In this document: positions 3,306-64,000 of the stretch, piece after piece
How the letters are laid out: the number at the start of each line of letters is the position of its first letter
How positions within the stretch are numbered: position 1 is the first letter of the stretch
From: Lineus longissimus
Taxonomy: Eukaryota > Nemertea > Pilidiophora > Heteronemertea > Lineidae
Reading direction: 5' to 3'
NCBI RefSeq assembly: GCF_910592395.1
Contig: NC_088326.1
Location: 12,901,001 to 12,965,000, forward strand
Length of the DNA: 64,000 nt
Notes under the pieces: model-generated
The model's database searches: none
Told to the model about the DNA's origin: nothing
Seen by the model: only the letters and a program-made list of their open reading frames with translations
Program-made: the position numbers and the translations under genes

Positions 3306-3414
3306 GTGGGTATAATGCATAGAGACCCCGGGCAATGACCAACCACAAGCGACTGCGGTGCTCTAATGCGACATTCGATTTTGATTTGGGCCAACTTCTC
3401 CTGATATGTATCGT

Positions 3415-3486: not shown

Positions 3487-3499
3487 GAGAAATCCTACC

Positions 3500-32830: not shown

Positions 32831-34212
32831 GTCCTGCACGGGATCTTTCCGACACTACATCCGATCCTCGTAACGGTAGATTAGAATCCTCGATTATAGA
32901 AGGGGACGAGTGTCTCAAAATAGAAGATAGGTATGATTCAGCAGATGTCATCGGTGATTACTTCAAGCTCGGTATTTCTTCTCGCATTTCTGTCAGTCAG
33001 TTATTTTCTCATGGGTCCGTTCTTACATTCATCACTCCAGATTGTGAACCCTATTCTGTCGCGATATTGATTTTTACAATGAGTGTTTCAACTGTTATGC
33101 CTACAAGATTTAAACAATGTCACATTGTCATGCAAGTATGGGCGTATGAACGTAGCGATACGTGTAATATTTTCAGACCGTGACGGTCGCCAATTCGTCG
33201 TGGTGGAGATTAGCTCTATGTTTACCAAGCTAATACCGAAAGCTTATACGGCTAATAGGGCGTGCTGTGCTGACATTGAACTACTTATATTGTTGTTCCA
33301 AGGCGAACCAATCGTTACGATGTCGGTCCATCAAGCGTAGTCAGGTTTTGATGTTTCCTGTGAATGATGTAATCCCTTGACGGTGCATGCCGTATTGCGT
33401 GTATACTGCTGATGACGATTTCGTAGCGAGTGAAAAAGAAAGTTTTCTTTTTCGAGTCAAACCTTCGAATTCTGAGCTGTGCCTGAAGATATGAAATGAA
33501 ACGCTAGTTGTTATCGTCGAAAATGGTGATTTTCTTAGCAAGAATAGTTAGAAATTCTGCTGATGCATCGGTAATTTGAACAGATCGAGGATGAGAAACC
33601 ATGGCAACAATAAAACGACCCGCCGCCATCTTTGGTACTTTTAGTACTTTGGCTGCGAATATTTCGTAAATTTACATAAATTTACATAAATAAATAATTT
33701 AAAAAAATTTATTGAAGTGACGCGTGAAATTTTATTTTTGAAAAATCCTGCATTTTGAAATTTCCATATCAACTGTGCCACCACAGGATAATGTACATAC
33801 GCATTATTTCACAATGCAAGCAATGTTTGGGCCTATTCGAAATACCGCTGTTTTCAAGAGGAGAGACATTCAAAACTACAAGGCAGATGTGTACTTTACG
33901 CACTCCTGGTAAATAGTAACTCCATTGGCCAATACATGAATAAAAAATCACACAAACCTTAAACTGTGATCGATAAATTCGGCACAAATATTAATCCACC
34001 GATCGCCAGCCACCAGATTCACTATAACAAGCTTCTCTCATCAAGGAGGTTTTACTGATGAAACAAAACTGTTGTCCTCCAACAAGCTGTCCAAAGTGGC
34101 TGTCCGAGTCGGCTTCGGTAACAAAATGCACCCGGGATTTTACATGCCCTTCATCGAGGTATTGTTTAATGAATGCGGCTAACGTATATATAACGTTGGC
34201 ACTTGCCCCTTA
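32831..34212. other. no gene seen
   Basis: Short frames only, some antisense to the GT15 leader. An AT-rich block lies near 33660-33760. Confidence 0.4.
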
Positions 34213-34627: not shown

Positions 34628-34903
34628 ATGGGACTAAAATCTTTGAAATTGTTGGGGGGTTTTCTCGTCACATTTGGATTTTTTCTTGTCCAGGCCACCT
34701 GTCGTTGTGGCCGTCGTGGTGAGGGCAAAAAACTAGAGCGGCTCATTGCAATGTTTACAGAAGCCTGGACGATACTATGCCGAATATCCAACACGGCGGT
34801 TCACGCTCCAGTTTACAGAAGATATCAGCTTGTTTCCGAAATACTTCGCTTCGAAACTCAAATGATGCACTTTGAACAGATAAGAGTCATCATCGTCATC
34901 TGA
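34628..34903 (+). CDS. possible small secreted protein (uncertain)
   Basis: An ATG frame of 91 residues begins MGLKSLKLLGGFLVTFGFFL, which scores by eye as a good signal peptide. It is followed by VQATCRCGRRGEG and a Lys/Arg-bearing segment to TGA. It lies 230 bp upstream of the DUF4773 gene on the same strand. There is no homology I recognise, no intron, and an antisense frame of similar length covers much of it, so it may be chance. Confidence 0.3.
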   Translation: MGLKSLKLLGGFLVTFGFFLVQATCRCGRRGEGKKLERLIAMFTEAWTILCRISNTAVHAPVYRRYQLVSEILRFETQMMHFEQIRVIIVI

Positions 34904-42500: not shown

Positions 42501-45500
42501 GCGATGTTATTTTCAGTGGCGTTTGTTTATGATTTCAGCGTTCACGTGCCCCGTTCCAACTGTTTCAAACGGAAGATGGCGTACTAATCAACCTCGGATC
42601 AAGCACAGAGAGGTTGTTACCATTACCTGTGACCCAGGTTATCTCACCCTCGGATCACCCTCAATCAAATGCAGTATAAAGCAGGCGAACATAAATGACG
42701 GTTGGAATATAGAACCACCGTCGTGCAGAGGTAAACAAACCGATAGACTGTAAATTCAGGATCGGAATTAGGACACCAAAAGCGTAGGGCTCTTAACGCA
42801 GTGCCGATCTGATTAGACTAGAGTCTCTGACGCTGTGAATCCTCGGACCCAGCCTCGTCCCAAGTCATTGCGCCTCCGCTATTTCCTGACGCAATATTTT
42901 GATTTTGCATCACTGCGCTCTGATTCGTTTCCTTATCACAAAAAGAGGGCAACATTATTACGACATCACCAGATTTCTCTGAAGTGTTTGATACCACAAT
43001 TTGCCTCTCGGCAAACTTATTTTTCAACCTCATTTTCGCAGAGATAAAGTGTGCTCAACCGAAAAGACCAGAAAACGGGATCATATCGAACAAAAACTCG
43101 TCCAACCAGAACAGGATTGGCGCAGAAATCGAGATCATTTGTCAACGATATTTCCTGTTAGATGGTTCTAAAAAAAGGAAGTGTATGGCGAATGGCCGGT
43201 GGTCAGGGACCGATGCAACATGCCAACCCACACGTGTCCAAGGTAACTTTGGGTGCTGCATGTCAACCCACGCGTGTCGAAGGTAACTTTGGGCGCTCCA
43301 TGTCAACCCACGCGTGTCCAAGGTAACTTTCGGCGCTCCATGTCAACCCACGCGTGTCGAAGGTAACTTTCGGCGCTCCATGTCAACCCACGCGTGTCGA
43401 AGGTAACTTTCGGCGCTCCATGTCAACCCACGCGTGTCGAAGGTAACTTTCGGCGCTCCATGTCAACCCACGCGTGTCGAAGGTAACTTTCGGCGCTGCA
43501 TGTCAACCCACGCGTGTCGAAGGTATCTTTCGACGCTGTATATCAACCCACGCGTGTCGAAGGTAACTTTCGGCGCTGCATGTCAACCCATGCGTGCCGA
43601 AGGTAACACGTGTCCGCCCAACCTGTCTTTCGGCGACGCAAAAATCTGTAGAAAAAGGACTAATGTTGTGTACTCAGCGATCCGCATACATACGGATCCA
43701 TGATAAGGCAATGAGCGCAACCTGCTTATCATCCCCCTAAGAAACAAATTATTTTTTATTGATACGTCATATTTATATGTCATGTTTTCAGATATTGCAC
43801 ATTGTCCCGTGCCTGTTATTCCATACGGGGCGAAAAGGTATTGCGAGAGAAAGTCTGGCGATAGATGCGTTTACGATGAAGGCGCTGTGGTCACCTACAA
43901 ATGCTTTGATGAATTCATATCTGGCGGGCCCAGTCGTATCAAGTGTAACGGAAAAGGTCATTGGGAGCCCGCTGATCTGCCAAAGTGCGAGGGTACGTTC
44001 AGGAATGGTGGAGCCAGAATGAACAATATTTAATGGCAATATTTTATGAGAGTAAGATCGTATACTGTATAGATATACGTAATTATCACGATTGTTAGCC
44101 GATTTAGTGGCTCCATTAAGAGCAGTGGAGCAGTAGGATGCCTTCTATACGGTCAACATCACCTTTAGAAGGTAGTTCCAGGTTTAAAATGGCCACAATT
44201 TAGTCCGCTTTATCACTGTTTTTTCTCGAGCCGTTTTAGGCTGCGATTATATTATAGCGTTCACGTTTTCACGTTGTTACGTGTCACTGTTCGCTTTTCA
44301 TGCGTGACATCATGAAGAACGAACAAGTCATTCCCAAAGAGCGGGCTACATACGATTCACGTTGTCACGTTTCACCCTCACGTCGTGTTTTCAAGCCTAA
44401 GGCAGTTAACTCGTGACAAGTGAAACAGAATCATGACAAGTGACAACATGAATCTTATATAACTCCAGCCTTTTGCGTATATTTGCAGCATTATTCAGTT
44501 TCGATGACCCCAAAAGTTTGGCAAGAAACTTCGGTGAGCTGTTTGATAAGATTCATAAGATTGATGAATACCTGGACACGGATGTAGGACGCATTCTGGA
44601 CCTTAACGCACCAGGAGGATGCGACATTACATTTCTTCTCGACTCCTCCGGTAGTATCACACAAGATGAATTCGATGATACTATCGCGTTCATCAAGCTT
44701 TTTGCTGAGAAGGTAATCTATCTCTCAGTTCCACAGCGCTAGCCAAGCGGCCATAGGACCATCCCTGCACAGTTGACTACATGGCACTATAGTCGTCTAT
44801 CCTCTGCGAGGCGGATCGGATCCCCCGTCCTTTTCCCCGTCCATTCCTTCACATCGTCCATCCGAATCCTCTTTTGTCGGCTGCGTCTCTGGTTTCCTTC
44901 TACTGTGCCCTGCAGTATGATGATCGCAAAGGTTACCTTGGCTCTTGTTATGTGGCAAAACAACCCTAGCTTCCTCTTCTTAGCCGAAGTCAGCAGGCTG
45001 TCGTGGCGTCCGAAGAGCTGAACGACCAGCTCTCTGACCTTGATGATGGTGGTATGAGTGAGGAGGTATGCGGTCACAGTTTAGCCCATGACTGCGGTGA
45101 CAGTTGAGCATCATGATTTCGCACTGCAGCCTAAAAAGACGTGCATACAAATATGCAGAAATTATTCAAATAAGAAAATATAGTAAGTAGTCCACATTTC
45201 TATTTCTTTCATATATTTCAGGTTGGTGTATCGAAGAGACATAATGGAGTAAGATTTGCAGCCTTATCGTTTGCTGCCAATGCTACAAATGACTTCGATG
45301 CGAACTACGGATTTCACACCTTTCCAGCAAAAACTGTAGAAGAAGTCAAGGGCTTGTTAGATAAGCTTGGTTACATAAGTAAGTTTGCCTGCAGTATGCT
45401 GCACTGTCTTTGTCGAGAAATCTGGGTAAATGAGGCACATGTCCGTCAAAGGTTATCTATCTTGTGAGACCAACCTCTTCATCCCGGTGCAGACTTTTAT

Positions 45501-48500
45501 GTATTTGAAGTTGCTCGACCTGTCTAGAGTTGCCCTCTTACGGAGGAATGTCGACTTATTTTCCTCAGGTGGCGGCACGAACATCAGAGGTGCGCTGACG
45601 TACTACGAAGAGGAGATGCTTCGACAAAATCGTGGAAAGAGAAAAGATGCCAAGCAGTACTTGTTCCTTTTTTCAGATGGTAAGATTAGTATTGTTTTTA
45701 ATCAGCAAAGACAGTGGGGTTGTGCCAGAATGTCCCTTTCAATACATACCCTGGTAGTCTGGTTATTGATTTGCTTTAAAAAAACACCCTCGCGACATCT
45801 GTAGTAGAATCGTCTATTGTGTTTGACATGGTGATAGGGATAGCGTCTCATCGTGAGGAAAACGGCACTGCAAATACGATTGAAAGAATGTAACAAAATC
45901 TACACTTGGAACACTTTCAGTTCCGAACAACTTGTGGGTCGTTTCGTTAAGGTGAGCTAACCGTACGTCGGTTGATATCAGTCCATCTAATTCAGATAAC
46001 ATGCTCGCTAGTATTGGACACAGCAGTTGTATCGGTGTTGTTGGTATTGAATGCATTACCCTGCCGAGGACTGAGCGAGAACTGTAGCGACAACACTAAA
46101 CCCGGCCGGGTGTCTGAATAGTATGGTTTCTTACAGGCCAGTACAACCTTGGGGGTAACCCAGAGGACGTAGCCTCACGCCTCCGTTCAGAGAAGAAGGT
46201 AGAAATATTCGTGATGAAGATGGGCAATGGGAAGGAGGCGTTGAAAGAAAAAACCAACACCAGAGTTCTCATGTCAATATCTTCAGAAAACAAGTTCGAT
46301 AAAGACGGAAATAAAGATCAGCATTTCTTTCAATTCAAAGATTATTCAAGCGTCATTAACTTTTTGGTACAGATGTTGCTCAACGGAAGCATTGGTAAGC
46401 AAGTTAGGTCACATTGACTGTTTACTACAAAAGCTGGTAAGTTATACAATATTGGAGGCTTTTTCCGACTTCTTGGTTTTTTCCGACTTTCTTGGGAAAT
46501 CCTAGTATGTTTCATAGGTTTTCTAGAAATCCAACCTTTCAGAGAAACACGGACGATGTCGGATCTTTGTCGGAAAAATCAGCAAAAAGTTCGCAGGAGG
46601 CTTTTTCTGATTTCTTGTTCTTCTATTTCCGATACTTTAGACTACAGTGAATGCGGTGTCGCCGGCACGACTAACATCACCGATGGCGACATTATCAGGG
46701 ATAAACCTGCCAACCTTTTCGCCTGGCCGTGGATGGTAGCAGTCATGGAAGCAAAGGCTAACAATGTGAAATTCAGAGAAGTACGTAGATATGTCATGGG
46801 AAACGCATTACAGGAATAAGGTATCACTCCCTCAATGACATTTTTCTTTGCCTGATTAACTATTTGCTATGCCTTATTTCCGGCGCCTTTTACCGTGAAG
46901 ATCTATTGTAAATACGGTTTGTCTGGCCGACCCTGGGTGGTGCCGGCGTATCTGGCAAAGGGCCTATTAACATTCACTACCGGTGAGTCGGCATATTCAA
47001 ATTGAAGTTGTCACAAGATGACAGTAATTCACTCTTAAAGTTGAAGTCGGAGTGGGAGTCGTATATTATTATTATCTATTTATTTAAGTGTCATCCATAA
47101 TATATAATGGCCAGCCATATCTGGCTTACAAGACACTACTATATGTACGTTTCGTTCGGGGGCTGCCGCGAGAGCCCGCGCGACCTCTCAATACCGAGTT
47201 CATACCGCGCGAGATTCTTGTTATCGTAAAGCGTCTATGTCAATTCATAACAGCCTCCTCAACAGGTGACGGTGTATAACCTTGTTTGCCCCTTACCCCG
47301 GTGTCGAAAGAATTTAAACATTAGCCCAATAACGGTCTATTGTCCTTAGAAATCGATCGATTTTAGAAAGCGATCTTCGACCATTGCTTGTGAAATAAAA
47401 ATTCTTTCAACTGTTGTGTGGTTTGACGTGCAATATTTATATTGCGATGGTCGTTTTCAGCACACGCAAGTATGTGGTGGAACCGTTCTAGATAATGAGT
47501 GGATACTGACTGCAGCACACTGTTTTCAAGGCGATACATATAATAATCCAAGGAGAGTCATGGTCAAGTTAGGTAAATTTGATACGTTATGATAGCATTC
47601 GGTATAAAATTGTCCTGAAACCTGATCCACTGTTGTTCAGATACGCTTGTTCGGCAAATTCTTTAAGATATTCCTGGTAATGACCTACTTTTAGGATGTT
47701 AAACCCAAACGTGCCAGAATTGACTTAATGTTTATCTTCTTCTGCGTTCGACCTTTATGAGATGCACGATATTGACAGTCAATCCACTTTTGGTGGAGAG
47801 TTGGACCACAGAGCCCCAGAGCTTTGTCGAAATGGTAGTGTCCCTTGGCCCGTATTTCTCTCTATTCTTCATTGAGGAGCTGGTACAGAGCCCCAGAGCT
47901 TTGTGGTCAGAGTGGTGTCCCTGGCATGGCCAGTATTTCTCTCTATCCTTCATTAGGGAGAAGGTCTGAAGCCACAGAGCCCCAGAGCCTTGTGGTCAGG
48001 GTGGTGTCTTTTGGCCAGTATTCCTCTCTATTCTTCATTAAGGAGCTGGTACAGAGCCCCAGAGCTTTGTGGTCAGTGTGGTGTCCCTGGCATGGCCAGC
48101 ATTTCTCTATATCCTTCCTTAGGGAGCGCTTGTTCGGCTAATTTTTCTTGCAGATACTTGGTAATGACCTACTTCTCGATTGTTAAAAACCAAACGTACC
48201 ATAGTTGCCTTTATATTTCTGATTTATTACAAGTGGCTTCATTTTAATTTACATACATTGTATAGTGTTTTTAAGATAGATCTGGCCAAAGGCACTTGGC
48301 TGACCCCTTGTCACGAAACCACAACTAGTATAATGTTACACAGCCCTGGGCATGTAGCCGGTGTCATAGTTGACCGGCTTATAATAGACACAGTGTATGA
48401 ACATTGGTTAGGCCTAACCTTAGGATAATCTAGTGCAAAACCACTATGTTTTGGTTGACGTGTTCTTGTCACATTCCTGAGTTCTACTTAGTACCTTTGG

Positions 48501-50895
48501 CCAGAACGATATGAAAAACATTTTACAATGTCTGAATTTCAGGTGCGATTGATTTTAAGAAGGCTCTATTCGACCGCCCCGACATCTTTGAGATGAAAGT
48601 TAGGTCAATGCATATTCATGAGAAGTGGTCCGTCGATCGAGATACCAAGAAGAAGTTTGCCAATGACACCAACTGGGCGCATGATATAGCGCTGCTCCGC
48701 CTTGATAGAGAAGTCCCGTTCTCCAAGAGTGTCCGACCAATTTGTTTGATTCCCGAAAACACATCAAACAACGGTAATTACTAGTAAGAATCAAAATATC
48801 TGTGCTCACCAGCCAGCACAGACTCTGCGTTCCACATCAATGGGGCTGGTCATTCCTCCCCGTTTCAAGACCTTATTCCATGGTGCCCGGGCTTTCTCGG
48901 TCGCTGCTCCGCGGCTGTGGAATGACCGGCCACCACAGAGCAGGTGTGCTGGTTCGATGGACAGTGAATGCCAATCTCAAGTAATCTGTTCTTCGTTTTC
49001 AAGAGAACTGCCACCCATATTTTAAATGGGCAGCCAGTTTTGTTTTCTTTAGGAGTTCAAGTTCTAGCCAGAATGGTGCTACATGTAGTTTTTTCTCAGG
49101 CAATAAGTATTGGTCAATTGGAGTGTTGTAAAATTGATTATGATATTGGTAAAGGGTTCTTCTCAACACATCTAAAATTTGGTGAGGATTGATCCTGTTA
49201 GACCTAAGAAGTACCTTTTTTACCTAAACCTAGGCACAGCAATGTTCACGTATTGTACACTGTGCCTAATACAGGGCTCTTGCCTATACATCTGATCCGA
49301 TGGTTTTTGGCATTTTCAGAGATTAAGGATAAGATTGCAGTGGTAACCGGTTGGGGCCAGTTCGATACGAGTGACGTGGATGGACAGAGGTCAGACATCC
49401 TGAGACAAATCAAACTTCCAGTTGTCACGCCAGACGAAAACCAAGAGAAGTGTAAAATCCATCATCGGGCGGAGAAATTCATATGTGCAGGTAATATTGA
49501 CTGGTTTCGTGATTTGCATATCCTCTCTAACTTTCTATTACCAGCTACTGACACAGGGGTTTGTACACTGCCAGAAATGATAATAATCAATACGTCATCA
49601 CTTCTTTCTTTAATGTAAGCAGTGCTGCATTGAGATAGTTAATAAGTTGTTTAGCACATTACCTCGCATTTAAAACAGAATTCAGGCCCAGACCAACACA
49701 CGGTCTATTGTATTTAAACAAAGCCCGCTCGCACCTAGGCCTAAATTCCCATTGTTCAACTGTCTTATCAAAAGGCTATCAGAGCAAATCTTGATAACAT
49801 CGACCCCCGCGAAACAGCTTTCATGGGGGTCGATAGATCAACAGCGACAAGGTCAAATAAACGTAATGGTCACGGACATACCCTGCGCAGCCAGAAATGA
49901 TTAAATCCAGGTAATCACTTCTAGTTTTGATGAACAGGATTGTATGGAGTTACGATAATAATGATAATGTTTGCTGATAACAAGTCGAGATTAATCCATA
50001 CTTGCTAATAAGAATAAGACGCAAAATATATCTTGCGGAGACAATACATGCGAAAACCCGTCCTTCCCATATAAACATCATTTTGACGAGACGAGGGGAT
50101 ATTCTGTCTGTGGACCCACGATATTCTATAACATCTGAGCCTTGTCTACTTATCTCGCTTTTCCAGGCGGAGAGAACAGAGTTGATGCTTGCAAAGGCAA
50201 CAGTGGTGGTCCGCTGATGGTCGAGTTTTTGGCGGAAAACAATCAACCATCCTGGAACCAAATAGGTAAGTTTCAGACCGTTTCAAGTTTTCGAGACAAA
50301 ACCATAATCACACAAGCTCATCTTCTCATACGCGTTTCACCAGGCGTATATCGCACAGGGTCACTGTCTATGGGCAAATGCCATTCTCTAAGGTGAGATT
50401 AAGACTACTCTCTCTATGCGCTAAGCGGGACAAGCCAGAACGCCAACACTGCAGTCAGACAATGGGTGATATGAATAAAGACTAGCAAATGCTTTTATCG
50501 AAATCTCCATGTACATTTACACTAGGCCTTTCTGTACAAAACCATGTACATTTACACTAGGCCTTTCTGTACAAAACCGGAGTAAAAGCATTTGCTAGTC
50601 TTTAATCATATCACCCAATATGTTCCCTCTAGATGATCCCTTAAACAGTATAAACAATTTTGTGATCGGAGCGAGTTTGTTTTTTTAAACTAAGCTTGGA
50701 CTAATAATAAAGAGAGAGAGGAAACGAGTTTCTGGTACATGCAATTTCAATAAGAATATTGTCACTTCTGTAGGTATTGTTTCCAGTGGATTTGGCTGCG
50801 CCAACAAGCTGGCATATGGACGGTACACAGACATAAGGGCGTACAGGCAGTGGATCAAAGGTATTATGACGAATAACACAAAAGCAAGGGAATAA
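39592..50895 (+). CDS. Bf: complement factor B/C2-like serine protease, 18 coding exons
   Basis: Exons: 39592-39691, 39992-40009, 40241-40303, 41176-41253, 41833-42117, 42539-42730, 43042-43242, 43792-43992, 44489-44712, 45222-45378, 45569-45679, 46137-46394, 46641-46780, 47461-47572, 48543-48773, 49320-49490, 50167-50265, 50774-50895. They sum to 2,763 nt (920 residues plus stop), all phases consistent. Residues 1-20 are a signal peptide; 21-86 match nothing I know; 87-181, 182-245, 246-312 and 313-379 are CCP modules; ~410-625 is a VWA domain with MIDAS DSSGS (431-435) and SGGTN; ~630-920 is the protease with His696 (TAAHC), Asp761 (HDIALL) and Ser860 (GNSGGP). Factor B binds activated C3 and, after factor D cleavage, becomes the C3 convertase; VGR|ILDL (Arg414) is the likely cut site. 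Asp854 gives trypsin-like pocket chemistry; residue 194 is Asn859, not the usual Asp. An acceptor at 39573-39574 implies a 5' UTR exon. Confidence 0.94.
40063..40095. repeat. perfect 16+1+16 palindrome in factor B intron 2
   Basis: CGCCACTCTAATCTAA is followed by one C and then its exact reverse complement. No mismatch. Confidence 0.95.
41463..41499. repeat. GGTCAA hexamer array in factor B intron 4
   Basis: Six near-perfect GGTCAA/AGTCAA units, giving several overlapping TCAAGGTCA words, the extended half-site bound by ERR/SF-1-type nuclear receptors. It may be only a microsatellite. Confidence 0.7.
41637..41772 (+). repeat. repeat family T3, internally deleted copy
   Basis: It keeps the AATACACGGTCTA left part and the CGACCCCCACG...CGGGGGTTGAT hairpin and ends GCAAATAAACGTAG. 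It lies in factor B intron 4. Confidence 0.75.
42243..42388. repeat. two units of an ~80-bp minisatellite in factor B intron 5
   Basis: Units contain GGCCAGTATTCCTCT-like and CAGAGCCCC(C/A)GAGC words. The same unit forms a larger array in intron 14 (47795-48128). Confidence 0.65.
43221..43620. repeat. 40-bp minisatellite, 10 units, overlapping the CCP3 exon end
   Basis: Ten units of exactly 40 bp start at 43221, 43261, 43301 and so on to 43581. The unit is TGTCAACCCACGCGTGTCGA followed by AGGTAACTTTCGGCGCTCCA. Unit 1 is the last 22 nt of factor B exon 7 plus its splice donor; later units repeat both. Units 2-7 are nearly identical; unit 8 has GGTATC, and unit 10 decays after GGTAAC. Confidence 0.98.
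44236..44471 (-). mobile_element. short inverted-repeat element, family T1, copy 6
   Basis: It contains GCGGGCTACATACGATTCAC and ends TCTTATATAACTCCAGCC, only 17 bp before factor B exon 9. Confidence 0.8.
47643..48210. repeat. ~80-bp minisatellite (4 units, 47795-48128) bracketed by a direct repeat, factor B intron 14
   Basis: Four units repeat CAGAGCCCCAGAGCTTTGTG and a GGCCAGTATTTCTCTCTAT-type segment. On each side lies a copy of CGCTTGTTCGGC...GGTAATGACCTACTT (47647 and 48127), so the array sits between direct repeats of about 80 bp. Confidence 0.8.
48265..48521 (+). mobile_element. short inverted-repeat element, family T2, copy 3
   Basis: TTTTTAAGATAGATCTGGCC start and GTACCTTTGGCCAGAACGAT end. 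It stops 21 bp before the acceptor of factor B exon 15. Confidence 0.85.
48815..49060 (+). mobile_element. LINE 3' fragment in factor B intron 15
   Basis: The frame reads GLVIPPRFKTLFHGARAFSV then AAPRLWND, the C-terminal signature of LINE reverse-transcriptase proteins. A shift in frame leads to FKRTATHIL. Truncated and decayed. Confidence 0.75.
49677..49866 (+). repeat. repeat family T3, full-length copy (~190 bp)
   Basis: It opens AATTCAGGCCCAGACCAACA, carries AAAGCCCGCTCGCACCTAGG, has a hairpin of ATCGACCCCCGC against GGGGGTCGAT, and ends near CAAATAAACG. There is no open frame. Other copies: 41637, 54229, 59783, 60519 (inverted), 63087, 63843. Confidence 0.85.
50464..50617. repeat. inverted repeat enclosing a 35-bp tandem duplication, factor B intron 17
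   Basis: Arms GGGTGATATGAATAAAGACT... (50464-50499) and the inverse ...AGTCTTTAATCATATCACCC (50581-50617) flank two copies of CATGTACATTTACACTAGGC...CAAAAC. Confidence 0.9.
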
Positions 50896-53367: not shown

Positions 53368-54844
53368 TCAATTATCTAACGGTGTTATCTCCATCGTTAT
53401 CTTCCCATAATCTGGGGCATTTGGATTCCATTCTGAAATATAAGATAAAAACAAGAATAAAACGGTAGTACGTATAGATGTTGTCCAGCACCGGTGTAGA
53501 AGTTTAAATATTCCCTTGGAAAAAGTGTCCGGTGCTATTGTATATGTTGTCGGATTAAGATATGGTTATAGAAACTCCAAATTATGCGAGACTTCGTCGC
53601 TCAAAGCAGCAGTCATGCTGGCTAATTTCGCGGTTCGAATTCTCAACAGTTTCACTGTCTCCATCCCAAAGATACTGCGGCACCGTGTGGCGGAAGTGCT
53701 TGGACATTGCGAGGAATTAAAACGGTACTTTGAAGCACTTTTTGGTTAGCAAAATCCCACCAATATGTCGTCTTTATCAGTTAGGATCCTTGAGATTCCA
53801 TGGTTGTCCTCCAATAGTAATTTTCTCACAAAATATCGCAGTCCTGCTCGTGAGGATTTATCAACCTCTTCACTAAGTCACGTTACACTCTGCCTGCTGC
53901 ACTGATGTTTGGTAAGCGTATACTTTGGTCACTAATTCATGAGATCAGAAAACGGTACGGAAACGGATTACCGCCATATACACATATGTACTAAGATACC
54001 TTTTGATTTGCGAATTAATGGTACTGTCTGAAACAAACTTACCACACTTGCAGGGCCTTTCCTTTGGGACATCGCTTGATATTGCTGCAGTTAGAGAAGA
54101 AATTGCAAATTAGCTGGAGATGGAGGAGGTGATCAGTCTATTTGAAATATAAATTCTTGGTAACAGCTCACTATGTAAAACTAATGAAAAGAAGTCAACA
54201 CTTGTGTGCTTCTTTTTTCGTGCAAGCGTGACCTTTGAATTGTGATAACACCGACCCCCACGAACCAGCTTTTATAGGAGTCGATAAACCTAAACCGGGA
54301 AGGGCAAATAAACGTTGTGCATGTAGTGAGTGGAGTGCAATCCTGTAGAATGTGGGTACTTACTGCAGTCACACGCCTGGCCTGGAAAATGGAGCAAATA
54401 TTGTGATGATAACTGATGGAGTCAGAGCCAGTACGACCTATGTGGCAAATAGGTCGTCTAGGATGTGGCACATCAGAATGTCTGACTGACGCTTACCTTT
54501 CCATAGATAGATGGAGCTGTAAGTGTTATGTTAATTTCTGGTACTACGTCACATAATAACCTCTTGGTCTCAGTATGGCCAATAAAGCTTTCAAACCAGT
54601 AGGATCTATTTCATGATGGAGAGTAAGCACACTGAACAGCAAAACAACACTTGTCGTATACAAGATGAAATAATTGGTCAAAGGTTTTAAAAGGATAACT
54701 TTAAGTATTTTCGAAGGCCTAATTTCCCTGGTGAGATCTCCTGCTGCGGTCGCCAGGGCCAAGATAGGATTTGTCTGAATGATAAGTAAACTTACTGTAA
54801 ACAATAATGGAGAGAAACAAAAGCATCACCAAAACCGTCCTCAT
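53368..54844 (-). CDS. small secreted CxC peptide gene A (microexon family)
   Basis: Four exons in transcription order: 54796-54844, 54364-54381, 54043-54084, 53368-53432. All joins are phase 1 and lengths sum to 174 nt, giving 57 residues. Exon 1 is a signal peptide (MRTVLVMLLFLSIIVY) that starts directly at an acceptor (TTTCAG|ATG), so a non-coding exon lies upstream. Exon 2 is an 18-nt microexon coding SQACDC. Exon 3 ends ERPCKC. Exon 4 codes EWNPNAPDYGKITMEITPLD-N and stop; its acceptor follows a strong pyrimidine tract. The mature peptide is about 40 residues with two CxC pairs and an acidic tail. It matches no family I know. It shares exon plan and CxC spacing with genes B and C. Function unknown; secretion is inferred from the signal peptide. 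Exon 4 is the least certain part. Confidence 0.68.
54229..54317 (+). repeat. right half of repeat family T3
   Basis: Contains CGACCCCCACGAACCAGCTT, a matching TCGATAAACC, and ends GCAAATAAACG. It lies in an intron of peptide gene A. Confidence 0.7.
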
Positions 54845-57042
54845 CTGAAACCAAGATTTAAGTATTTTATTGGCAGATGTAGCTGTTTTTTACCAAGACC
54901 CTCTGACCTCAGAACGAGGTTAATCGTTTTTCCCAGTAATGATGGATATACAAATGGAAGGTATTTTGGAATGTCTGATTTACGACATATTCCAAAAGGA
55001 CCGGTCCCATGTGACGAGCGGAGCCGAACAGCTGCGCAATGCTGAGACCCATTTCAGGGGGCTCAACTTGATCAAAAAACAGATAGACATAATTTTCTTT
55101 ATAGAATGTATAAAAAAAATCGATCCTGTCCATCTCATTTACGACATCTTTTATCATTGCATCATCTTTTATCGAGCTATCATTGAAGTTTTCTACTATT
55201 GAAAGAAATACAACTGCTTTGTTATTAATACTAACGCAATAACGGCATCATTATACGCCATATCACCAAAAATTCAATTTTGTTCCAATTCAGCTCAAAT
55301 GGCGATAACACGCACGACGTGGCGATCATGTCTTCCGATGTAATTAAGAAAAATCACGACAGCCAGTAGAAAACAAAATGACAGTAATAATCTATTTACC
55401 TTTATTTCTGCTCGAAGACAATTCTCTCGACGTTAAACGAAACACCTGCTTTACTCGAACAGCCGTTTAGTATCGCGGAAAGATTCCAGAAAAGTAACGC
55501 TTATGGTGCATTGACACTTCATCATTCCTTTACACGGCTTCTGAGCATGCGCCAATTAGAGCGCTATGATTGGATGATATTGATATTCAAGGTTGTCAAG
55601 ACAAGTGAATAAGTTTCTTGAATAATTAGACCAGATTAGAAATGGAATGTTTGAAAATTAAGATCGCACGTTGTCAGATCGTTTTCGAGCGTATGAGGAA
55701 AAAAAAGATTCTGCTGCCGTATGTCGTCGACGGATTTTCGCATGGTATCTTCATCACGCATTCTGCCAAATCATTCAAGATAAAACTATACTAAACTAAT
55801 CAGTTAAAATATGCACAATCTGTCACAAGCTTCATCAACGCCCATCAAATGTTATCAAATGTTATCAAGGGCGTTGATACGACTTCAAGCAAACAGTATT
55901 AAAAACCATTACTATTTACATTGTCACGTAATTAACATAATTAACATTGCGTGACGTAGCAATCACGTGACGTGTGGACATTGCTACTCAATCAATGTGT
56001 CTGTTCATCGCGAAAATTAATGATTGCTGCCCTACGCAACATTTATGCTTATCCATAAAATCACCTAAAAACACACCAAAAAGTTCATATTTTATTTACA
56101 AAGATCATATTTTGTTATTTATTGAAACAGTGAACCGATTAATGAAAGAAGCTGGCACTTGTTAGGCATGTATACGACTGGAGACGCAGTAGATGACGTC
56201 GGATTATCAAAAATCTGAATCTCCGGGGAAGATGGCGGCACTTGATCGAATCCACGGTTTGAAATTTGATTTAAATGTCGTCACTGTGCGAGTTTGGGTG
56301 TTTGCCGACACTGTTCTTTAAGTCACTAAAGATAAAGCTACACATCGAAAGATCGGAAACCTGCCAGTCATGATATATTGCAGTAAGATTGATATAACAA
56401 ATTGGCTGATTTCTGATGTTAGACAAGGTTTCATATGACGTAATTATTATTATATCAATACTTAGATACATTGTGGGTTCGATAACACATTTCTCGTGAC
56501 CCTCGGCAGAGAGCTTCGCTAATTGCCAAGTCCTATGAACGAGATGGTCACGATTACTGGTACCTTTTGCCTGAGACCGGCCACGCAAACACCTCGACCG
56601 AATGTGAATCTCCTCGACCAGACGGAAGCTGGCCATTACCTCCGATTTGAGGCGATGGCGCACAACAATTACGCAAAAGGAATGGCATCCTTACGAAGAG
56701 CTGTGATTGAAGGAGGACGAAGTGTGTGAACATGGTAAAGTGTTTTTCAGATTGATCTGGCCAATGGTACTTGGTTGAACATGGCTGAATGTGATCTGGT
56801 CACAATCCAGTGTACCTTTGGCGAGAACGATATGACGAACACTTTAAATGCATTTTATCGGCGACGGCTTTTGAAGAATTCCATCATGCCTTTTAAGTTT
56901 ATGAAAGGTGAAATACAAGAGTCGGGCAAATAAGAAAAAGCGGCTTATGACACGAACTCTGACGATCGTAAGGTTTTCGAGACCTAAGAATTGAGGAACA
57001 TAAGTTGGAATGAAGCTATGAGTATTTGGGCGAGTTACTTGT
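54845..57042. other. no gene seen between peptide gene A and the GPCR
   Basis: It holds a short T2 element. AT-rich spacer includes the imperfect hairpin around 55840-55880. A frame near 56500-56650 resembles degraded transposon coding (AKSYERDGHDYWYLLPETGH) but I cannot place it. A leader exon for gene A should lie just above 54845. Confidence 0.4.
56739..56845 (+). mobile_element. short T2 element, internally deleted
   Basis: TGTTTTTCAGATTGATCTGG and GCGAGAACGATATGACGAAC termini flank only ~55 bp. Confidence 0.75.
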
Positions 57043-58263
57043 CTAGCGTCGTAGACAGCATTTCTGTATACGTTTTCCCAGAAGGAAAAATGTATTTTTC
57101 ACGTTGGACCGAAACGATGAACTACTAAGGCAGTACAGATAACCGTTAATACACATATTCAAATCGTTTAGAAAGAAAACTAACCACTGGATTATGAAGT
57201 TCATAATTGCCTCCTCACAGTTCCATTTATAGATAAAATCTGCTGTTACCATTAAGGGCATGTGGGCAGTTACGTGGGACGGACCAGTGAGAATTAAGAA
57301 CAGTAACGAGGTCAAGACACACATGAGAGTGACTTGACGATCTTTGGCGTTCTGTCGTCGTTGTTTCTCATCGCCTCCCATCTGCTGCCGAGATTTGGCC
57401 GAGATTCTCATGGTTATTATGATTGTGCAGTTATTCACAATCAATGTCGCGAAAGGTAAAAACCCCTGTAAGACGTTGTTTTTCCATCCCATGTACCCAT
57501 CCGGGGCGATTGTATAGCACCGACCTTTGTAATGTATTGTAAAGAGTAAGTAATCAAGGTTTAACGTAAGACAACAAAAAAATGTTATGATTACCGCGAC
57601 GAGACCTCTTCCTGGGGAAAATAGTGTCACAGCTCTAAACGGGAGTGCCACGGCGACAACACGTTCAATTGACAGCAACACCAACAGGTAGATGGTAAAG
57701 GTAACGAATGTGTCATACACTAACATCTGAAACCTACAAAACAAGTTGTTCATTTTTATGGAGGATCTGATCCATTGATACCCGAACCTTATCGTGAGGT
57801 AAAATGATTCACAGACCGCCAGCGTCGAAATGTATATGAACGCCGAACTCTTGCGAATCTTCGGCAAGGAACCTAAAAGAACTAACCCATTTCCGACGTA
57901 GCACGTTGGAAGCAACATGAAATCGACATTGCTACTAACAAAACTGTGAAACTTCAGAGCACGTCTTAAATGTGGTTCGGTCCGGAATCTACTCGTGTCG
58001 CACAGAATCTTTCTTCCTGGTATAGCTGGAACGTTTTGAACGGTCGTCAAACGCATGGTTGTGTTATTATTTGGATAACTCATGCTGGCGTAGATTTCCT
58101 GGCCGCCATTTTGGATAGTCACGGACCCGACGTTCCTCCCGCAGCATGCAGTGCCAAGGATGATAAACAAAACATATGCTTTGAATATCGGAACAACGTA
58201 GTTGAGAGAAGAACAGCTTCTGCGGTCGAAGCGGGCATAAAGGACAATGAAACACCGCATCAT
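57043..58263 (-). CDS. class A (rhodopsin-like) GPCR, peptide-receptor type, single exon
   Basis: A 406-residue intronless protein. A hydrophobic N-terminus (~20-41) may be a signal peptide; N66/N67 are glycosylation sequons. Seven membrane segments follow from ~108. Landmarks: Asn125 (GN, 1.50), Cys176 (3.25) with Cys249 in loop 2 for the conserved disulfide, ERV at 200-202 in place of DRY, Pro270 (5.50), Pro328 (6.50), and NGYLY at 373-377 in place of NPxxY. The end of TM7 (LNDLNMCINGYLYCLSSSSF) resembles invertebrate neuropeptide receptors such as the FMRFamide type. Unusual points: Glu152 where Asp 2.50 is nearly universal, and no Trp in TM4. It should signal through G proteins at the cell surface; the ligand is unknown. 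It lies between peptide genes A and B on the same strand. Confidence 0.88.
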   Translation of the reverse strand: MMRCFIVLYARFDRRSCSSLNYVVPIFKAYVLFIILGTACCGRNVGSVTIQNGGQEIYASMSYPNNNTTMRLTTVQNVPAIPGRKILCDTSRFRTEPHLRRALKFHSFVSSNVDFMLLPTCYVGNGLVLLGSLPKIRKSSAFIYISTLAVCESFYLTIRFGYQWIRSSIKMNNLFCRFQMLVYDTFVTFTIYLLVLLSIERVVAVALPFRAVTLFSPGRGLVAVIITFFCCLTLNLDYLLFTIHYKGRCYTIAPDGYMGWKNNVLQGFLPFATLIVNNCTIIITMRISAKSRQQMGGDEKQRRQNAKDRQVTLMCVLTSLLFLILTGPSHVTAHMPLMVTADFIYKWNCEEAIMNFIIQWLVFFLNDLNMCINGYLYCLSSSSFRSNVKNTFFLLGKRIQKCCLRR

Positions 58264-59434
58264 TTTGCTCTACAAGGAGTCAACTTCAGAGCAAAAGTAA
58301 TATGAATTACTACTTTCAGAAAACCGGTTGAAAAACTTCCTCTGTAAACTTTAACCGTGTGCACTCCTTCTGCGACATTGAATACTCGTGCAGAAGTCTT
58401 AGAAAAATGGCACATGCGAGGTTTCACGTGAGTCTTTTCGGATTTGAAGCTTGAAATGAATGAAATAATACGGTAAAACTTCATCGAACAAAAAGAGCGA
58501 AGGTTGTTCTCATTGTTATCAACAGCCTACACGTGACACCGCCAAGTAAAAATTGGAAAGGGCAGGACGACCGAATGAAATCAGCCAAAATGTCGTTAGC
58601 CGAAATTCTCGTTCTAAATTTGTAGACTTGACCAAGTTCAACAAGCCTTCCTCTTCTGCACAACACACGTGCGCAATTGAATCTGCTTGTTGCATTACTA
58701 GGTCTGAAACGATATGATATAATGATGCTGCTGTCTCATAAAAACGATTTGTTTGAAACATTAGCTAATAATGTAGCTTCAGGCACTTTTGTAGCCAAAG
58801 GTTGAGGACAGAATTACAGTAATTATTCCGCCTCAAATTCGTGTGGCGCAGGTTTTGTGTTTCCTCTACAACTACACATAACATACCATGTGATCACGAA
58901 TCGATCAAGAATAATAATATAGAAAACAAAACAATTCAACGATTTTATTTTGATCAGCTGCATTTTAATCAACAAAATACACAAAACATCGAGCGCGTGC
59001 ATGCGTCCGCTATTCCCCGTTTTCCTATTCTAGTTTTTGATATCTTGGTCGATTCGATTCTTTCTTGGTAGAGCCGGCGCCATCATGATATGGCCGACGC
59101 CATCTTGGTGAGACCGACGCTATCGTTGATGCATTACTTAAGAGTTGATATCGAATGTCATAATTTTTACAACTGCAATCCCGTCAGTAGATTCCCACTC
59201 TAAAAAGGAAATTCAACCGGTCATATACAAGCTTTGTGTTTGTGAAAGGATGGCCTTGCCTGCTACATGTACCTGTTTCTACAACAGCTGTGGCCATGTT
59301 TATTATTTAGCTGAGCCTAGTCTATTTTGGGCGGAAGAGGTGCTTCATTTTACAGAAAACACCATGATTTAGGGGTTGCGGCAGTGCTGGTTTTGATAAG
59401 CTGGGCAGGAGTGATCATGCTCACGATAAAATAT
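58264..59434. other. no gene seen upstream of the GPCR
   Basis: Minus-strand short frames (58260-58484, 58519-58761) may be leader sequence of the GPCR. GCCATCATGATATGGCCGAC-type imperfect repeats occur near 59070-59130. Confidence 0.4.
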
Positions 59435-60447
59435 TTACAGATTTAACTCTACAAAAATGTTAATCATTCGTGGTCTATTGATTTGGCACTTTTCGATCCG
59501 TCGCAGACACCAGTCTGTGTCCCTCCGTAAGGTAATATTACAACGACCATTCCTTCCAATCCGACCTCCGAAACCTGCAATGGTCAGATCTGAATTTGCC
59601 CAACTTCCACCTCAACATAGGTATAAGATGGCGGCGAGGAGTTAATACTCACGACAGTTGCACACTTCAGTGTCATTCGCCGTCGACAGATCAGGAATTC
59701 CTGAAAGAACAAGAAAAACGTGCCAGTGCGACTGCAACTTGATCAGCATTATAATGTCTGCCCCCCATCTCGCAGTTTTTAAAATTCAGACCTAGCCTTA
59801 CACACGGCCTATTGTCTTTGAACAAAGCCCGCTCGCACTAAGGCCTAAATTCCCATTGTTCTACTGTCTTATCAAAGGGTGATCAGGGCAAATCTTGATC
59901 ACATCGACCCCCGCGAAACAGCTTTCATGGGGTCGATACGCCAAAACCGACAAAGATAAATAAACGCAAGGTGTAAATTGAGCGGGTTTTGATTGCAGCG
60001 ATCATGCTTATTCTGATTCACTTTGCTACTTACTGCAAGTACAGCCTTCACCTGTAAGAGAAAATCATTTAGAACTCTTCAAGATCTTGAGAGACAATTT
60101 CATCATTTACATATCAATTTGGTTCGGGTTCGTCAAGGATCAAGTGGCTCAATAATTCTCGAAAACGCTTTCTGCGAATTGACAAGTAATGACATTTGTA
60201 ATTTAACTTTATAACTGCTTTAACTAACTAGTAGATAACTCTATTTGCTATGAGATAGCCACATCATCATCTACACAGGCGCTACTGATTGCATCAGCAG
60301 TTACAAAAACAACGATTGCCATTTAGCGCGTATTAGTCACCATTGATGTCCATCTCCAGCCATGATCGAAGTGGTACTGCGCAGATTTCACTTACTGTGT
60401 CCGATTAAACCGACAAGGCACAGCATCAGGACCAAAACGATCTTCAT
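59435..60447 (-). CDS. small secreted CxC peptide gene B (microexon family)
   Basis: Exons in transcription order: 60396-60447, 60034-60051, 59653-59700, 59435-59574. Joins are phase 1; 258 nt give 85 residues. Exon 1 codes MKIVLVLMLCLVGLIGH, a signal peptide that begins right at an acceptor (TTTTCCAG|ATG); a likely 5' exon ends at a GTAGGT donor near 60822. Exon 2 is an 18-nt microexon coding SEGCTC. Exon 3 ends TEVCNC. Exon 4, less certain, reads RFGGRIGRNGRCNITLRRDT and on through two more Cys to VELNL-stop; an alternative acceptor would extend it upstream to 59589 in the same frame. The mature peptide is basic with about seven Cys. No known family. The first three exons match genes A and C in order, phase and CxC endings. 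Confidence 0.62.
59783..59972 (+). repeat. repeat family T3, full-length copy
   Basis: AATTCAGACCTAGCCTTACA start, AAAGCCCGCTCGCACTAAGG, hairpin CGACCCCCGCG/TGGGGTCGAT, end AAATAAACGCAAGG. It lies in an intron of peptide gene B. Confidence 0.85.
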
Positions 60448-60518
60448 CTGGAAAATGGAAAAATAAGATTTCATTACGATTATTTGCACTGGCCGATTTA
60501 GGTCTATAGATCGCGACC

Positions 60519-60655
60519 ACCCTGAGAGGTTTGGTAGGGGGTCGATATTATTAAGATTTGTCCCTTATTAAGACCACAGAACAGTAGGAATTTAGGCCTA
60601 GGTGCGAGCGTGCTTTGTTTAAAGTCAGTAGACCGTAAGGTTCTGTAATTTTCAA
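60519..60655 (-). repeat. repeat family T3, inverted partial copy
   Basis: Reverse complement reads AAAGCACGCTCGCACCTAGG, then AATATCGACCCCCTACC. Confidence 0.7.
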
Positions 60656-61860
60656 ATGAAACAAACATTATATTACACTGATGCATAACTGACTTTGTGA
60701 TCTTAATGCAATTTAAGAACATTCGATGCCAACAAACTTATATAGATTACAGTGGAAATGCTGCTTTTCGCAGTAGACGTAGGGCGAACTTTTTCAGAAA
60801 TATGATGCTGTCTGGACCTACCTTCAGTGTCTATATATGATGCTAGTCGTGGAACTCTAGTATCCTCGCTGGATGAAGCAATGTATCTGAGGCTCCACGG
60901 TGAGAATATCGGCCGAAGTTGTTCAATGAAAATCTGGGCCTCCAATTGCTCCAAGATACGTAGTTCTTATAAAATACTCCCATGTAACGCTTCTGATAAG
61001 ACTTGAAATAGGTGATTATTCAAAATGGCGATTTCACTGTGCTGGTGAATATCAAGACCGCAGGCCAAATCCGCAAAGCTGTCTTTCGTGACAGTTTTTC
61101 AGTGGTAAGGAAAATACTCTTATCGTGATGAATGAGATGATAGCAGTTCCTACCAAATTATTCGCTGCACCTGAACGAGGTTTACTGACTTTAATCACGA
61201 GAATGTCTACTGATCATGTTTTGACTCCAAGGTGGTCGAACATGCTTCCGTTAGTCGTGCCACCTCGGAGGCATCCTTTCAGTTAAAAGTAGTTAAAATG
61301 ATTTTCTCGTTACAAGTATCAATGTCTCTGGTTTACGAACAACTACTTTTGTTTTATGTGAAGTAAGCATCTAACTTATCACGATAAGTGCATTTTACTC
61401 TGCACCCAAAATATTGTCAAAATTTCAAAAACTAAACCTGAATGAGGTCACGACCTAATTATCGTGAAGTCTCTGATGATGTCCACACAGTTCAGTGTGC
61501 ATCTGACACACCAAGAGTGGAGTGGTACGCCAGGGTAACATTGTCACGCAACCATATGCATTATCTGTGTGCATTACCTATATGCATTATCTGTGTGCAT
61601 TATCTGTATTTGACAGAACCAAGCCCATTATGATACACAAAACACAGTTTCTGAGCCTGTTTCAAATGTTAAAATGAGAAAAAGATGATATTATCTTAGG
61701 GGCGTATTTATGCCAGATGATGATGGGATCTATTCAGTGCTGTGATGTAGATGATATGCTCGAACGTGCGCATGCGTTGCTCTGGTAACATGGCGGCCAA
61801 ACCGATATTCTCCCGCCCTACGTGGGCGATTGAAATCATTCAAAAAGATACTGTACAGGG

Positions 61861-62010
61861 TCGTCCTGGATAAAAGGTCCCATTCTGAATCCAGGTGTAC
61901 ATGTCGTCCTGGATAAAAGGTCCCATTCTGAATCCAGGTGTACATGTCGTCCTGGATAAAAGGTCCCATTCTGAATCTAGGTGTACATGTCGTCCTGGAT
62001 AAAACGCCAT
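61861..62010. repeat. 43-bp minisatellite, 3.5 units
   Basis: Units start at 61861, 61904, 61947 and 61990. The unit is TCGTCCTGGATAAAAGGTCC followed by CATTCTGAATCCAGGTGTAC and ATG. Confidence 0.95.
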
Positions 62011-62213
62011 TATCTGCATCCGGGGTGCATAAGGGAAAATAAGGAACAGTCAAAGACAAAGAATAACTCAAACTCATCACATGTGTATTGCTACAGTGCA
62101 TTTATAATGTACAAAGAAATATCAAGCTGTGCTTTTGCGCCAATCGTCCCTGCCGATCATAAGGATTACACGTATTAATACATTTCATCTTCGAAATCCT
62201 GTACATGCAGAGT

Positions 62214-62275
62214 GCTTCTTAAAACTTGACACAGAGAATGTTTCCCGTACTAAGTTTTAAGAAACACCCTGTATT
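62214..62275. repeat. short hairpin with mariner-like ends
   Basis: GTGCTTCTTAAAACTTGACA at the left and the near inverse AAGTTTTAAGAAACACCCTG at the right, just past the stop of peptide gene C. Probably a tiny MITE in the 3' UTR or flank. Confidence 0.6.
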
Positions 62276-62286
62276 ATAGCAAATTA

Positions 62287-63752
62287 TTAACAGTCGCTGC
62301 TACTCGAACTGGAGCTGGAACTGGAACTAGATGAACTGGATGAGCTTGATCCACCCATCATCAATACTGAATTACCATGGAGATTTATAAATGGCATTTG
62401 GCAGCTTTCAGGGCTATTTACGCTGAGGCCGCCCGGGCCGGTGCCACCCGCTGAAATATAGAGGTGAGGCGAGGTATCAGAATGATATTCAACTATAATG
62501 GAACTGGAAATCCGGCCAGCAACACAGATTATTACAAGTCAGTTACACAGAATTCAGATAGAAGTTTATTAACACAGCTTCAAGAAGATCAGACAAGTTT
62601 TCAGTATCAGTGTCAGTATTATGGTGTCGTAATCCTATTGGATTTTTGCCAGAGGTATATGGAGACCAATACGCTACTGTCTATCTATGTGGGACCCTTC
62701 AGTTGCCCTGGCGCAGGCAGGACTACGTCTTTTAGTCTCATCTGACAGACCTTCAGTAATTTATCTCATATTGATCGAGCCCCAATAGTCGTTGTCTAAT
62801 AGATATCACTTTGCAATATGCAAAATGTCTTATTAGATGTATAACACACGTCACCAGATTTCCCCTGTGTATGCTACATGTATTTTCTAACTTACCACAC
62901 GAGCACGGTATGATGCCGTTGACCACGACCGCGCTACTTGAACTGCTGCTGCTGGAGCCCGCCCTCACTGGGAGAGATATGCCTGAAAAGAAACTTAGTT
63001 CCACTGCAGTGACGGAAGCAGGAAACGGTGGGGCTTTTCCAAAGAGTTGACTCGACAGTGGTAACTACATTACGTTTTGTGCCAAAGGAATTTAGGGCTA
63101 GCCCAATACACGGTCAATTGTCTTCAAAACAAGGCCCGCTCACACCTTGGACCTAAATTCCCATTGTTCAATTGTCTTATGGAAGGGTTACTAGCCAAAA
63201 TATTGCTACCATCGACTCCCTGATCAAAAATACTTCGATGAGGGACACTAGGCCAAAATCCGATTAACGTATTGTAACCAAAATGCATGTGAAAGCAGTA
63301 AAACCGCTCTTTTCTTCTATAATAGTCGTTGATTAAGAAATATGCGCCACTCTAAGTAATTTGTCGTGAAAAATAATCACTTACTACATTCGCAGCCTGG
63401 AAAATAGATAAGAAATTTATATGAAAGTGTTATGTATTAGGGGCTCGCCAAAATATCTAGTACGCTATCAGTGGAAAAGGACCGTGGCCAGCAGAGGATA
63501 ATCGAATTCAGAAGAAAAAGCAATGGGAGATGAAGGTGATCTTTTTTTGAAAATGCAGGGAAAAGTCGTTAAGCTATTAAGGTGAATGTGCTACAACGAT
63601 ACAAATCTACGATGATGTTGAACGAAAAATTCCCTCAATCTGTAAATTAGGGTCTATGTAATTGCCATCACCAGGAGAGAGAAAAGAAGATTCTTACCGT
63701 AGGTCAAAGCCACAACAGCAAACGATATTGACAAAACCAAGAGGATTTTCAT
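62287..63752 (-). CDS. small secreted Cys/Ser-rich CxC peptide gene C (microexon family)
   Basis: Exons in transcription order: 63698-63752, 63385-63396, 62896-62982, 62287-62450. Joins are phase 1; 318 nt give 105 residues. Exon 1 codes the signal peptide MKILLVLSISFAVVALTY, three bases after an acceptor. Exon 2 is only 12 nt and completes GCEC. Exon 3 codes SISLPVRAG, eight Ser, then VVVNGIIPCSC. Exon 4 codes AGGTGPGGLSVNSPESCQMP, then FINLHGNSVLMMGG, 18 consecutive Ser and the end DC. The Ser codons mix TCN and AGY, which points to selection on the protein rather than plain codon slippage. Six Cys in the mature part: two CxC pairs, one ESC, and a penultimate DC after the Ser tract. No family recognised. 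The Ser tracts could be O-glycosylated or phosphorylated. All borders are clean GT/AG. Confidence 0.75.
63087..63268 (+). repeat. repeat family T3, copy with degraded right end
   Basis: GGAATTTAGGGCTAGCCCAA start, AAGGCCCGCTCACACCTTGG, then a weakened CGACTCCCTGAT hairpin. It lies in intron 2 of peptide gene C. Confidence 0.75.
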
Positions 63753-63842
63753 TTTCTGTAATACACAAATATCGGTTTATAACCTCAAAAAGCAGGTTGT
63801 CACAGAACTCACAGTAACGTTATTTTGCCCTTACCCGTAGTT

Positions 63843-64000
63843 TAGAGAATTCAGACCTGGTCCAATACACGGTCTATTATCTTTGAACAAATCCTGCTCG
63901 CACCTACATGCCTAAATTCTACTTCTTCTTCATCATTATCAAAGGGTCGTCATGACAAATCTTGATAATACCGACCCAAGGAAACGGCTTCTATGGGGAG
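63843..64000 (+). repeat. repeat family T3, runs off the window end
   Basis: GAGAATTCAGACCTGGTCCA start, then ACACGGTCTATTATCTTTGA, then TACCGACCCAAGGAAACGGC; the right end is outside the window. Confidence 0.75.

What the first reader, a model, noticed from the sequence alone, without database searches (positions are those of the whole stretch)
53368..63752. Three tandem genes for short secreted CxC peptides with a shared microexon plan, not visible as open reading frames
Genes A (53368-54844), B (59435-60447) and C (62287-63752) lie on one strand. Each has a 16-18-residue signal exon, a 12-18-nt microexon completing a CxC pair (SQACDC, SEGCTC, GCEC), a 42-87-nt exon ending in a second CxC (ERPCKC, TEVCNC, IIPCSC) and a terminal exon. 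Every join is phase 1, total lengths are multiples of three, and each ATG lies at or within three bases of an acceptor, so all have a leader exon. Shared structure with little sequence identity suggests an old, fast-evolving family. I know no family with this pattern. They lie beside factor B, so a defence or signalling role is possible but unproven.
Basis: partly seen in the sequence, partly recalled or inferred. Interest (0 to 1): 0.88.

Follow-up and report, generated by a model that had tools for sequence, protein, structure and literature searches.

The report
Three tandem microexon secreted-peptide genes
An unidentified animal genome appears to hold three neighbouring genes for very short secreted cysteine peptides, each split into the same four small exons; they look real and match no family we could search, but no RNA data were available to prove the splicing.

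Summary
At the stated places on the minus strand lie three four-exon gene models (57, 85, 105 aa); all nine internal joins are phase 1 and all donors are near consensus. A scan for the plan (signal exon, CxC microexon, CxC exon) found complete chains only at these three genes, and none in 200 dinucleotide shuffles. Of 187 symmetric microexon-like segments under a loose rule, only these three show CxC in an open frame.

Weak parts: the terminal exons, C's exon-3 acceptor, and kinship. Outside the plan and the cysteines, similarity among A, B and C is not significant. All-phase-1 joins are not special: a DUF4773 gene in the window has them too. No relative turned up in Pfam, the PDB (10, 25, 26, 53) or the protein collection (16, 41); not every peptide went to every search. 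The host genome could not be searched: 11 requests did not complete.

Best reading: an orphan family of secreted, probably disulphide-bonded peptides, resembling schistosome microexon genes in principle but not filed with them. Function is inferred only.

The parts
54796..54844 (-). Gene A exon 1: signal exon (MRTVLVMLLFLSIIVY), acceptor AG directly before ATG
   Evidence: recovered by scan
54364..54381 (-). Gene A exon 2: 18-nt microexon, SQACDC with split codons
54043..54084 (-). Gene A exon 3: 42 nt ending in CKC
53368..53432 (-). Gene A terminal exon (EWNPNAPDYGKITMEITPLDN, stop)
   Evidence: good acceptor but choice not unique
60396..60447 (-). Gene B exon 1: signal exon (MKIVLVLMLCLVGLIGH), acceptor AG directly before ATG
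60034..60051 (-). Gene B exon 2: 18-nt microexon, SEGCTC
59653..59700 (-). Gene B exon 3: 48 nt ending in CNC
59435..59574 (-). Gene B terminal exon (3 more Cys; 78-nt intron before it; weak acceptor); AATAAA 130 nt past stop
63698..63752 (-). Gene C exon 1: signal exon (MKILLVLSISFAVVALTY)
63385..63396 (-). Gene C exon 2: 12-nt microexon, GCEC
62896..62982 (-). Gene C exon 3: 87 nt, Ser run, ending in CSC; two other in-frame acceptors at 63003 and 62967
   Evidence: this acceptor only, the other two
62287..62450 (-). Gene C terminal exon, two more Cys, ending in a long Ser run and DC

Best explanation
A, B and C are three paralogous genes of an animal. Each makes one short secreted peptide, of about 38, 65 or 86 residues if the signal is cut just before the first Cys. 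The microexon adds the first CxC right behind the signal peptide, and exon 3 ends with the second CxC. Inferred: the two CxC pairs form two disulphides that pin a variable loop (11, 13 or 26 residues), while the last exon gives each peptide its own tail (acidic in A; basic with three more Cys in B; Ser-rich with two more Cys in C). Released from secretory cells, they would act outside the cell as effectors or ligands, the constant part being the pinned core and the variable parts deciding the target. Because exons 2 and 3 are symmetric and phase 1, skipping either keeps frame; skipping exon 2 would remove the first CxC. Shown: the gene models, the plan and the lack of relatives in the collections searched. 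Inferred: splicing, paralogy, disulphides, secretion and role.
For: Exact gene models with uniform phase and near-consensus donors. Complete chains of the plan occur only at these three places and not in 200 shuffles, and only 3 of 187 microexon-like segments show CxC in an open frame. All three exon 1s pass a hydrophobicity rule for signal peptides, and possible cleavage sites lie close to the CxC (von Heijne matrix recalled from memory; no SignalP). The three genes lie within about 10.4 kb on one strand.
Against: There is no transcript evidence. Mature sequences of A, B and C are not significantly alike, whether cysteines are held fixed (p 0.16-0.74) or shuffled too (p 0.06-0.22), and terminal exons show no similarity above shuffles. 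Terminal exons and C's exon-3 acceptor are not uniquely determined. No homologue was found for B or for the three-sequence profile, so constraint on the sequence cannot be shown.
Confidence: 0.6

Rival explanations
1. Protease-inhibitor reading: signal peptidase cuts just before the first Cys, leaving a free N-terminal Cys-x-Cys that chelates the zinc of metalloproteinases, as the N-terminal Cys-x-Cys of TIMPs does (zinc chelation recalled), but on a mini-scaffold.
For: A site directly before CxC is the best-scoring one in B and the second best in A and C (matrix recalled). The first CxC comes immediately behind the signal in all three. [quoted passage not shown]
Against: In A and C another cleavage site scores higher (8.84 against 5.20, and 6.93 against 4.75). 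No TIMP/NTR match in Pfam at E up to 10. 38-86 residues look too few for an NTR fold, A above all (judgement), and there is a second CxC.
Confidence: 0.1
2. Divergent, shortened relatives of the DUF4773 family, which also has paired CxC/CxCC and phase-1 introns and has a gene in this window.
For: DUF4773 gene at 35135-37977 (+), E 7.2e-25, three introns all phase 1, CQC then CGCC.
Against: Alignments of A, B and C with it do not beat shuffles (p 0.26-0.53; terminal exons against its exon 3 p 0.18-0.69). Both CxC pairs lie in one exon there and in two exons here. No PF15998 hit for A, B or C.
Confidence: 0.07
3. The front halves are real but the terminal exons are partly wrong, so the true peptides differ in their C-terminal parts.
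For: Any acceptor downstream gives some tail; alternatives are listed for all three genes; B's chosen acceptor has a weak pyrimidine tract. No AATAAA/ATTAAA within 600 nt for A and C.
Against: Among the candidates listed, C's chosen acceptor has the highest pyrimidine count and A's the joint highest (13 each). B has an AATAAA 130 nt past its stop.
Confidence: 0.3
4. Chance or decayed genes: the pattern was assembled by eye from random splice-like signals.
For: The motif was defined after looking; no relatives found; little sequence similarity among the three.
Against: 0 chains in 200 shuffles and no other CxC microexon in 64 kb on either strand; the reading frames of all three models are intact.
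Confidence: 0.05

Closest known systems
Schistosome micro-exon genes (MEG)
   Same: Short secreted proteins; signal peptide as the main constant; short exons, mostly multiples of three, between longer introns; few conserved motifs (abstract beginning and passages of PMC10526429).
   Different: Those passages give short exons of 6-81 bp (3-81 in the abstract), in the vast majority 15 bp, and a hydrophobic motif after the signal. Here each gene has one 12-18-nt and one 42-87-nt symmetric exon and a CxC..CxC plan. No MEG sequence was compared.
TIMP / NTR-domain inhibitors
   Same: Cys-x-Cys at or near the mature N-terminus.
   Different: No NTR match in Pfam, shorter, a second CxC. Molluscan TIMP genes have mostly five exons (132 of 142; PMC10755359, passages).
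DUF4773 (PF15998)
   Same: Signal-like start, paired CxC motifs, phase-1 introns; a copy in the same window.
   Different: Longer domain with more Cys; both CxC in one exon; no significant similarity.
CXC chemokines (recalled)
   Same: Small secreted protein with CxC behind the signal exon (recalled).
   Different: No Pfam match for A, B or C at E up to 10; two CxC pairs; exon plan recalled to differ.

Membership tests
Schistosome MEG genes | Signal peptide at the N-terminus | tested here: met
   Hydrophobic signal-like exon 1 in 3 of 3; no SignalP run
Schistosome MEG genes | Genes composed of short exons (3-81 bp; most 15 bp, multiples of three) | tested here: inconclusive
   Coding exons of 81 nt or less: A 4 of 4, B 3 of 4, C 2 of 4; only two symmetric internal exons per gene and none of 15 nt. 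Ranges from PMC10526429
Schistosome MEG genes | Hydrophobic/aromatic motif ended by a basic residue after the signal | tested here: not met
   Motif as quoted in PMC10526429, compared by eye with the peptides: CxC follows the signal instead
Schistosome MEG genes | Sequence similarity to known MEG proteins | not tested
   No MEG sequence was fetched
TIMP (PF00965, accession recalled) | NTR domain match | tested here: not met
   No Pfam family for A, B, C at E up to 10; mature parts: A none, B only DUF1285_N at 0.24, C with Ser runs removed none. HMMER's filters drop most matches above about 0.1
TIMP (PF00965, accession recalled) | Cys-x-Cys as the mature N-terminus | tested here: inconclusive
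   Best predicted site in 1 of 3, second best in 2 of 3
DUF4773 | Match to PF15998 | tested here: not met
   window's own DUF4773 gene matches at 7.2e-25
DUF4773 | Residue similarity to the window's DUF4773 protein | tested here: not met
   Not above shuffles in 3 of 3 mature peptides and 3 of 3 terminal exons; signal exons of A and C are above shuffles (p 0.015, 0.005), B's is not (p 0.054), read as general signal-peptide likeness

The most novel reading that the evidence does not exclude
A microexon-gene system outside flatworms: a tandem cluster whose phase-1, symmetric exons let one constant CxC..CxC frame be combined with different loops and tails by exon skipping or swapping between neighbouring genes, making a diverse secreted peptide repertoire from a few genes that ordinary ORF-based annotation misses. 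(That the host is not a flatworm is itself inferred from its neighbours, not shown.)
Probability: 0.2. Interest if true: 0.75.

Novelty: new variant of a known kind. Interest (0 to 1): 0.42.

Why it matters
If real, it is a family of very short secreted peptides that escapes ORF-based annotation, because its key cysteines sit on a 12-18-nt exon. That makes a general point testable: how many secreted peptide families are missed for this reason. If the host is not a flatworm, it would also suggest that the microexon way of building secreted peptides arose more than once.

Tried and rejected
DUF4773 kinship was tested with shuffles and not supported. Kinship of the terminal exons by a CQ motif shared by B and C was seen by eye and not significant (p 0.17-0.23). 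Similarity of introns: a dispersed repeat lies in introns 2 of B and C, and a part of it in intron 2 of A, all in the same orientation. It also lies upstream of C and (reversed) between C and B, and at five other places (about 18.0, 29.3, 35.7, 41.7 and 49.7 kb), so it is not evidence of shared intron descent. The ferredoxin-thioredoxin reductase hit of B in the PDB (E 0.16 and 0.43) was judged chance. Naming the organism failed: the GPCR's relatives (4 of 4910 candidates at E up to 1e-5, the best 41% identical) carry no informative name. The phage collection search with the GPCR gene found nothing and was uninformative. Not searched: C alone against the PDB, and A or C alone against the protein collection; they went in only through profile A2, with C's Ser runs shortened. 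In eight paper searches I recognised, among the titles and abstract beginnings listed, no paper describing this plan; three of the eight listings were cut short, the other five were shown whole, and most subscription papers are not in the library. Papers: passages only were seen of PMC3679795, PMC10755359, PMC10526429 and PMC5825161; search listings only for the rest.
Full report
WHAT IS THERE. A (54844-53368), B (60447-59435) and C (63752-62287) are on the minus strand. Each has a 49-55-nt signal exon, a microexon (18, 18, 12 nt) whose last full codons give CxC, an exon of 42, 48 or 87 nt ending in a second CxC, and a terminal exon. All nine internal joins are phase 1; seven of nine donors are GTAAGT. 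Products are 57, 85 and 105 aa.

IS IT MORE THAN CHANCE. A scan of both strands for the plan with strict splice signals found 5 signal-like exons, 3 CxC microexons, 4 CxC exon candidates and 4 chains. Two of the signal-like exons are on the plus strand and belong to nothing; everything else belongs to A, B and C, C appearing twice through alternative acceptors. In 200 dinucleotide shuffles the means were 1.73 signal-like exons, 0.01 microexons, 0.005 CxC exons and no chain; single shuffles reached at most 6, 1, 1 and 0. With loose signals there are 187 symmetric microexon-like segments, of which 3 show CxC in an open frame, all of them these, all phase 1. A relaxed scan for CxC exons gave 9 candidates: 5 are exon-3 forms of A, B or C. 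Of the other four, two are overlapping plus-strand segments near 54.27 kb, one is an extended form of A's microexon, and one lies at 21.1 kb. The motif was taken from the finding, so the scan shows specificity in this window, not an independent discovery.

WHAT IS LESS FIRM. B's terminal acceptor fails the pyrimidine cut-off, and each gene has other acceptors downstream. AATAAA lies 130 nt past B's stop; no AATAAA or ATTAAA lies within 600 nt for A and C. The leader exon is inferred from an AG at (A, B) or 3 bases before (C) each ATG, and C's does not pass the acceptor rule; trans-splicing onto that AG is possible too, and was not tested.

ARE THEY ONE FAMILY. The order of parts, the phase and the tandem position argue for it. 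Residues do not: pairwise scores of the mature parts (C with its Ser tail shortened) do not beat shuffles, with cysteines held (p 0.16-0.74) or not (p 0.06-0.22), nor do terminal exons (p 0.17-0.52). Signal exons of A-B and B-C score above shuffles (p 0.011, 0.005) and A-C do not (0.24), but A-DUF4773 and C-DUF4773 do as well (p 0.015, 0.005; B-DUF4773 0.054), so this shows only that they are signal-peptide-like. BLAST of introns and flanks against the window found shared DNA only as dispersed repeats and one tandem array.

NEIGHBOURS. A single-exon rhodopsin-type GPCR lies between B and A on the same strand (PF00001, E 1.1e-15; best PDB relatives alpha1A-adrenergic receptor at 9.6e-6 and CCR5 at 2.8e-5). 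On the plus strand from about 41.8 kb there are Sushi repeats (three above the Pfam cut-off, one below), a VWA match just under the cut-off, and trypsin-like TAAHC and DIAL motifs at 47.5 and 48.7 kb. At 35135-37977 (+) lies a DUF4773 gene, E 7.2e-25, whose three introns are all phase 1. So at least one other secreted-type gene here is built with phase-1 joins only.

RELATIVES. Pfam at E up to 10: none for A, B, C; for the mature forms only a chance-level DUF1285_N to B at 0.24. PDB: one hit to B at 0.16 (whole) and 0.43 (mature), none for mature A or the profile; C alone was not searched. The 5.8-billion protein collection: no candidate for B; 498 candidates for the three-sequence profile, none at E up to 1; A and C alone were not searched. 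That collection finds only relatives sharing exact five-residue words, so absence there says little about animals. The window's own genome and its relatives could not be searched: 11 identical requests did not complete.

HOW IT PROBABLY WORKS. See Best explanation. The TIMP-like alternative was examined because the first CxC comes directly behind the signal. A cleavage site just before it ranks first in B and second in A and C by a matrix recalled from memory. It remains a lead, with no sign of an NTR domain.

VERDICT. A real, specific and unexplained sequence pattern, most likely three genes of an orphan secreted-peptide family; expression, kinship and function are unproven.

Noticed in passing
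window 35135-37977 (+): Four-exon DUF4773 (PF15998) gene with a signal-like start, all three introns phase 1, E 7.2e-25.
   Followed up: partly
window 34628-34903 (+): Open frame of 91 aa with a signal-like start followed at once by CRCGRRGEGKK; no Pfam match at E up to 1. It lies just upstream of the DUF4773 gene.
   Followed up: no
window 57043-58269 (-): Single-exon rhodopsin-type GPCR gene between B and A; best relative in the protein collection 41% identical over 71%.
   Followed up: partly
window 31853-32854 (-): Glyco_transf_15 (KTR/MNT-like mannosyltransferase) frame of 333 aa, E 9.9e-43; recalled as mainly fungal, here among animal-type genes.
   Followed up: no
window 41820-48700 (+): Factor B-like gene: Sushi repeats, VWA fragment, TAAHC and DIAL protease motifs; no intact DSGG in the three plus frames of 40-52.5 kb, perhaps split by an intron.
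   Followed up: partly
window 61852-62004: Tandem array, 43-bp unit, 3.5 copies, 97% matches, some 280 nt downstream of gene C.
   Followed up: no
window 59771-59969, 63084-63220, 63820-63998, 60472-60636, 49677-49868 and others: Dispersed repeat of up to about 190 bp, several copies in introns 2 and flanks of these genes and elsewhere.
   Followed up: partly
window 29816-30211 (+): CARD domain frame, E 6.6e-10.
   Followed up: no
window 5961-9335 (+): 1124-aa stop-to-stop frame of ankyrin repeats with a DUF7829 match.
   Followed up: no
window 3414-3487 (+): tRNA-Ala (TGC) gene; also the only Rfam match in the window at gathering score.
   Followed up: no
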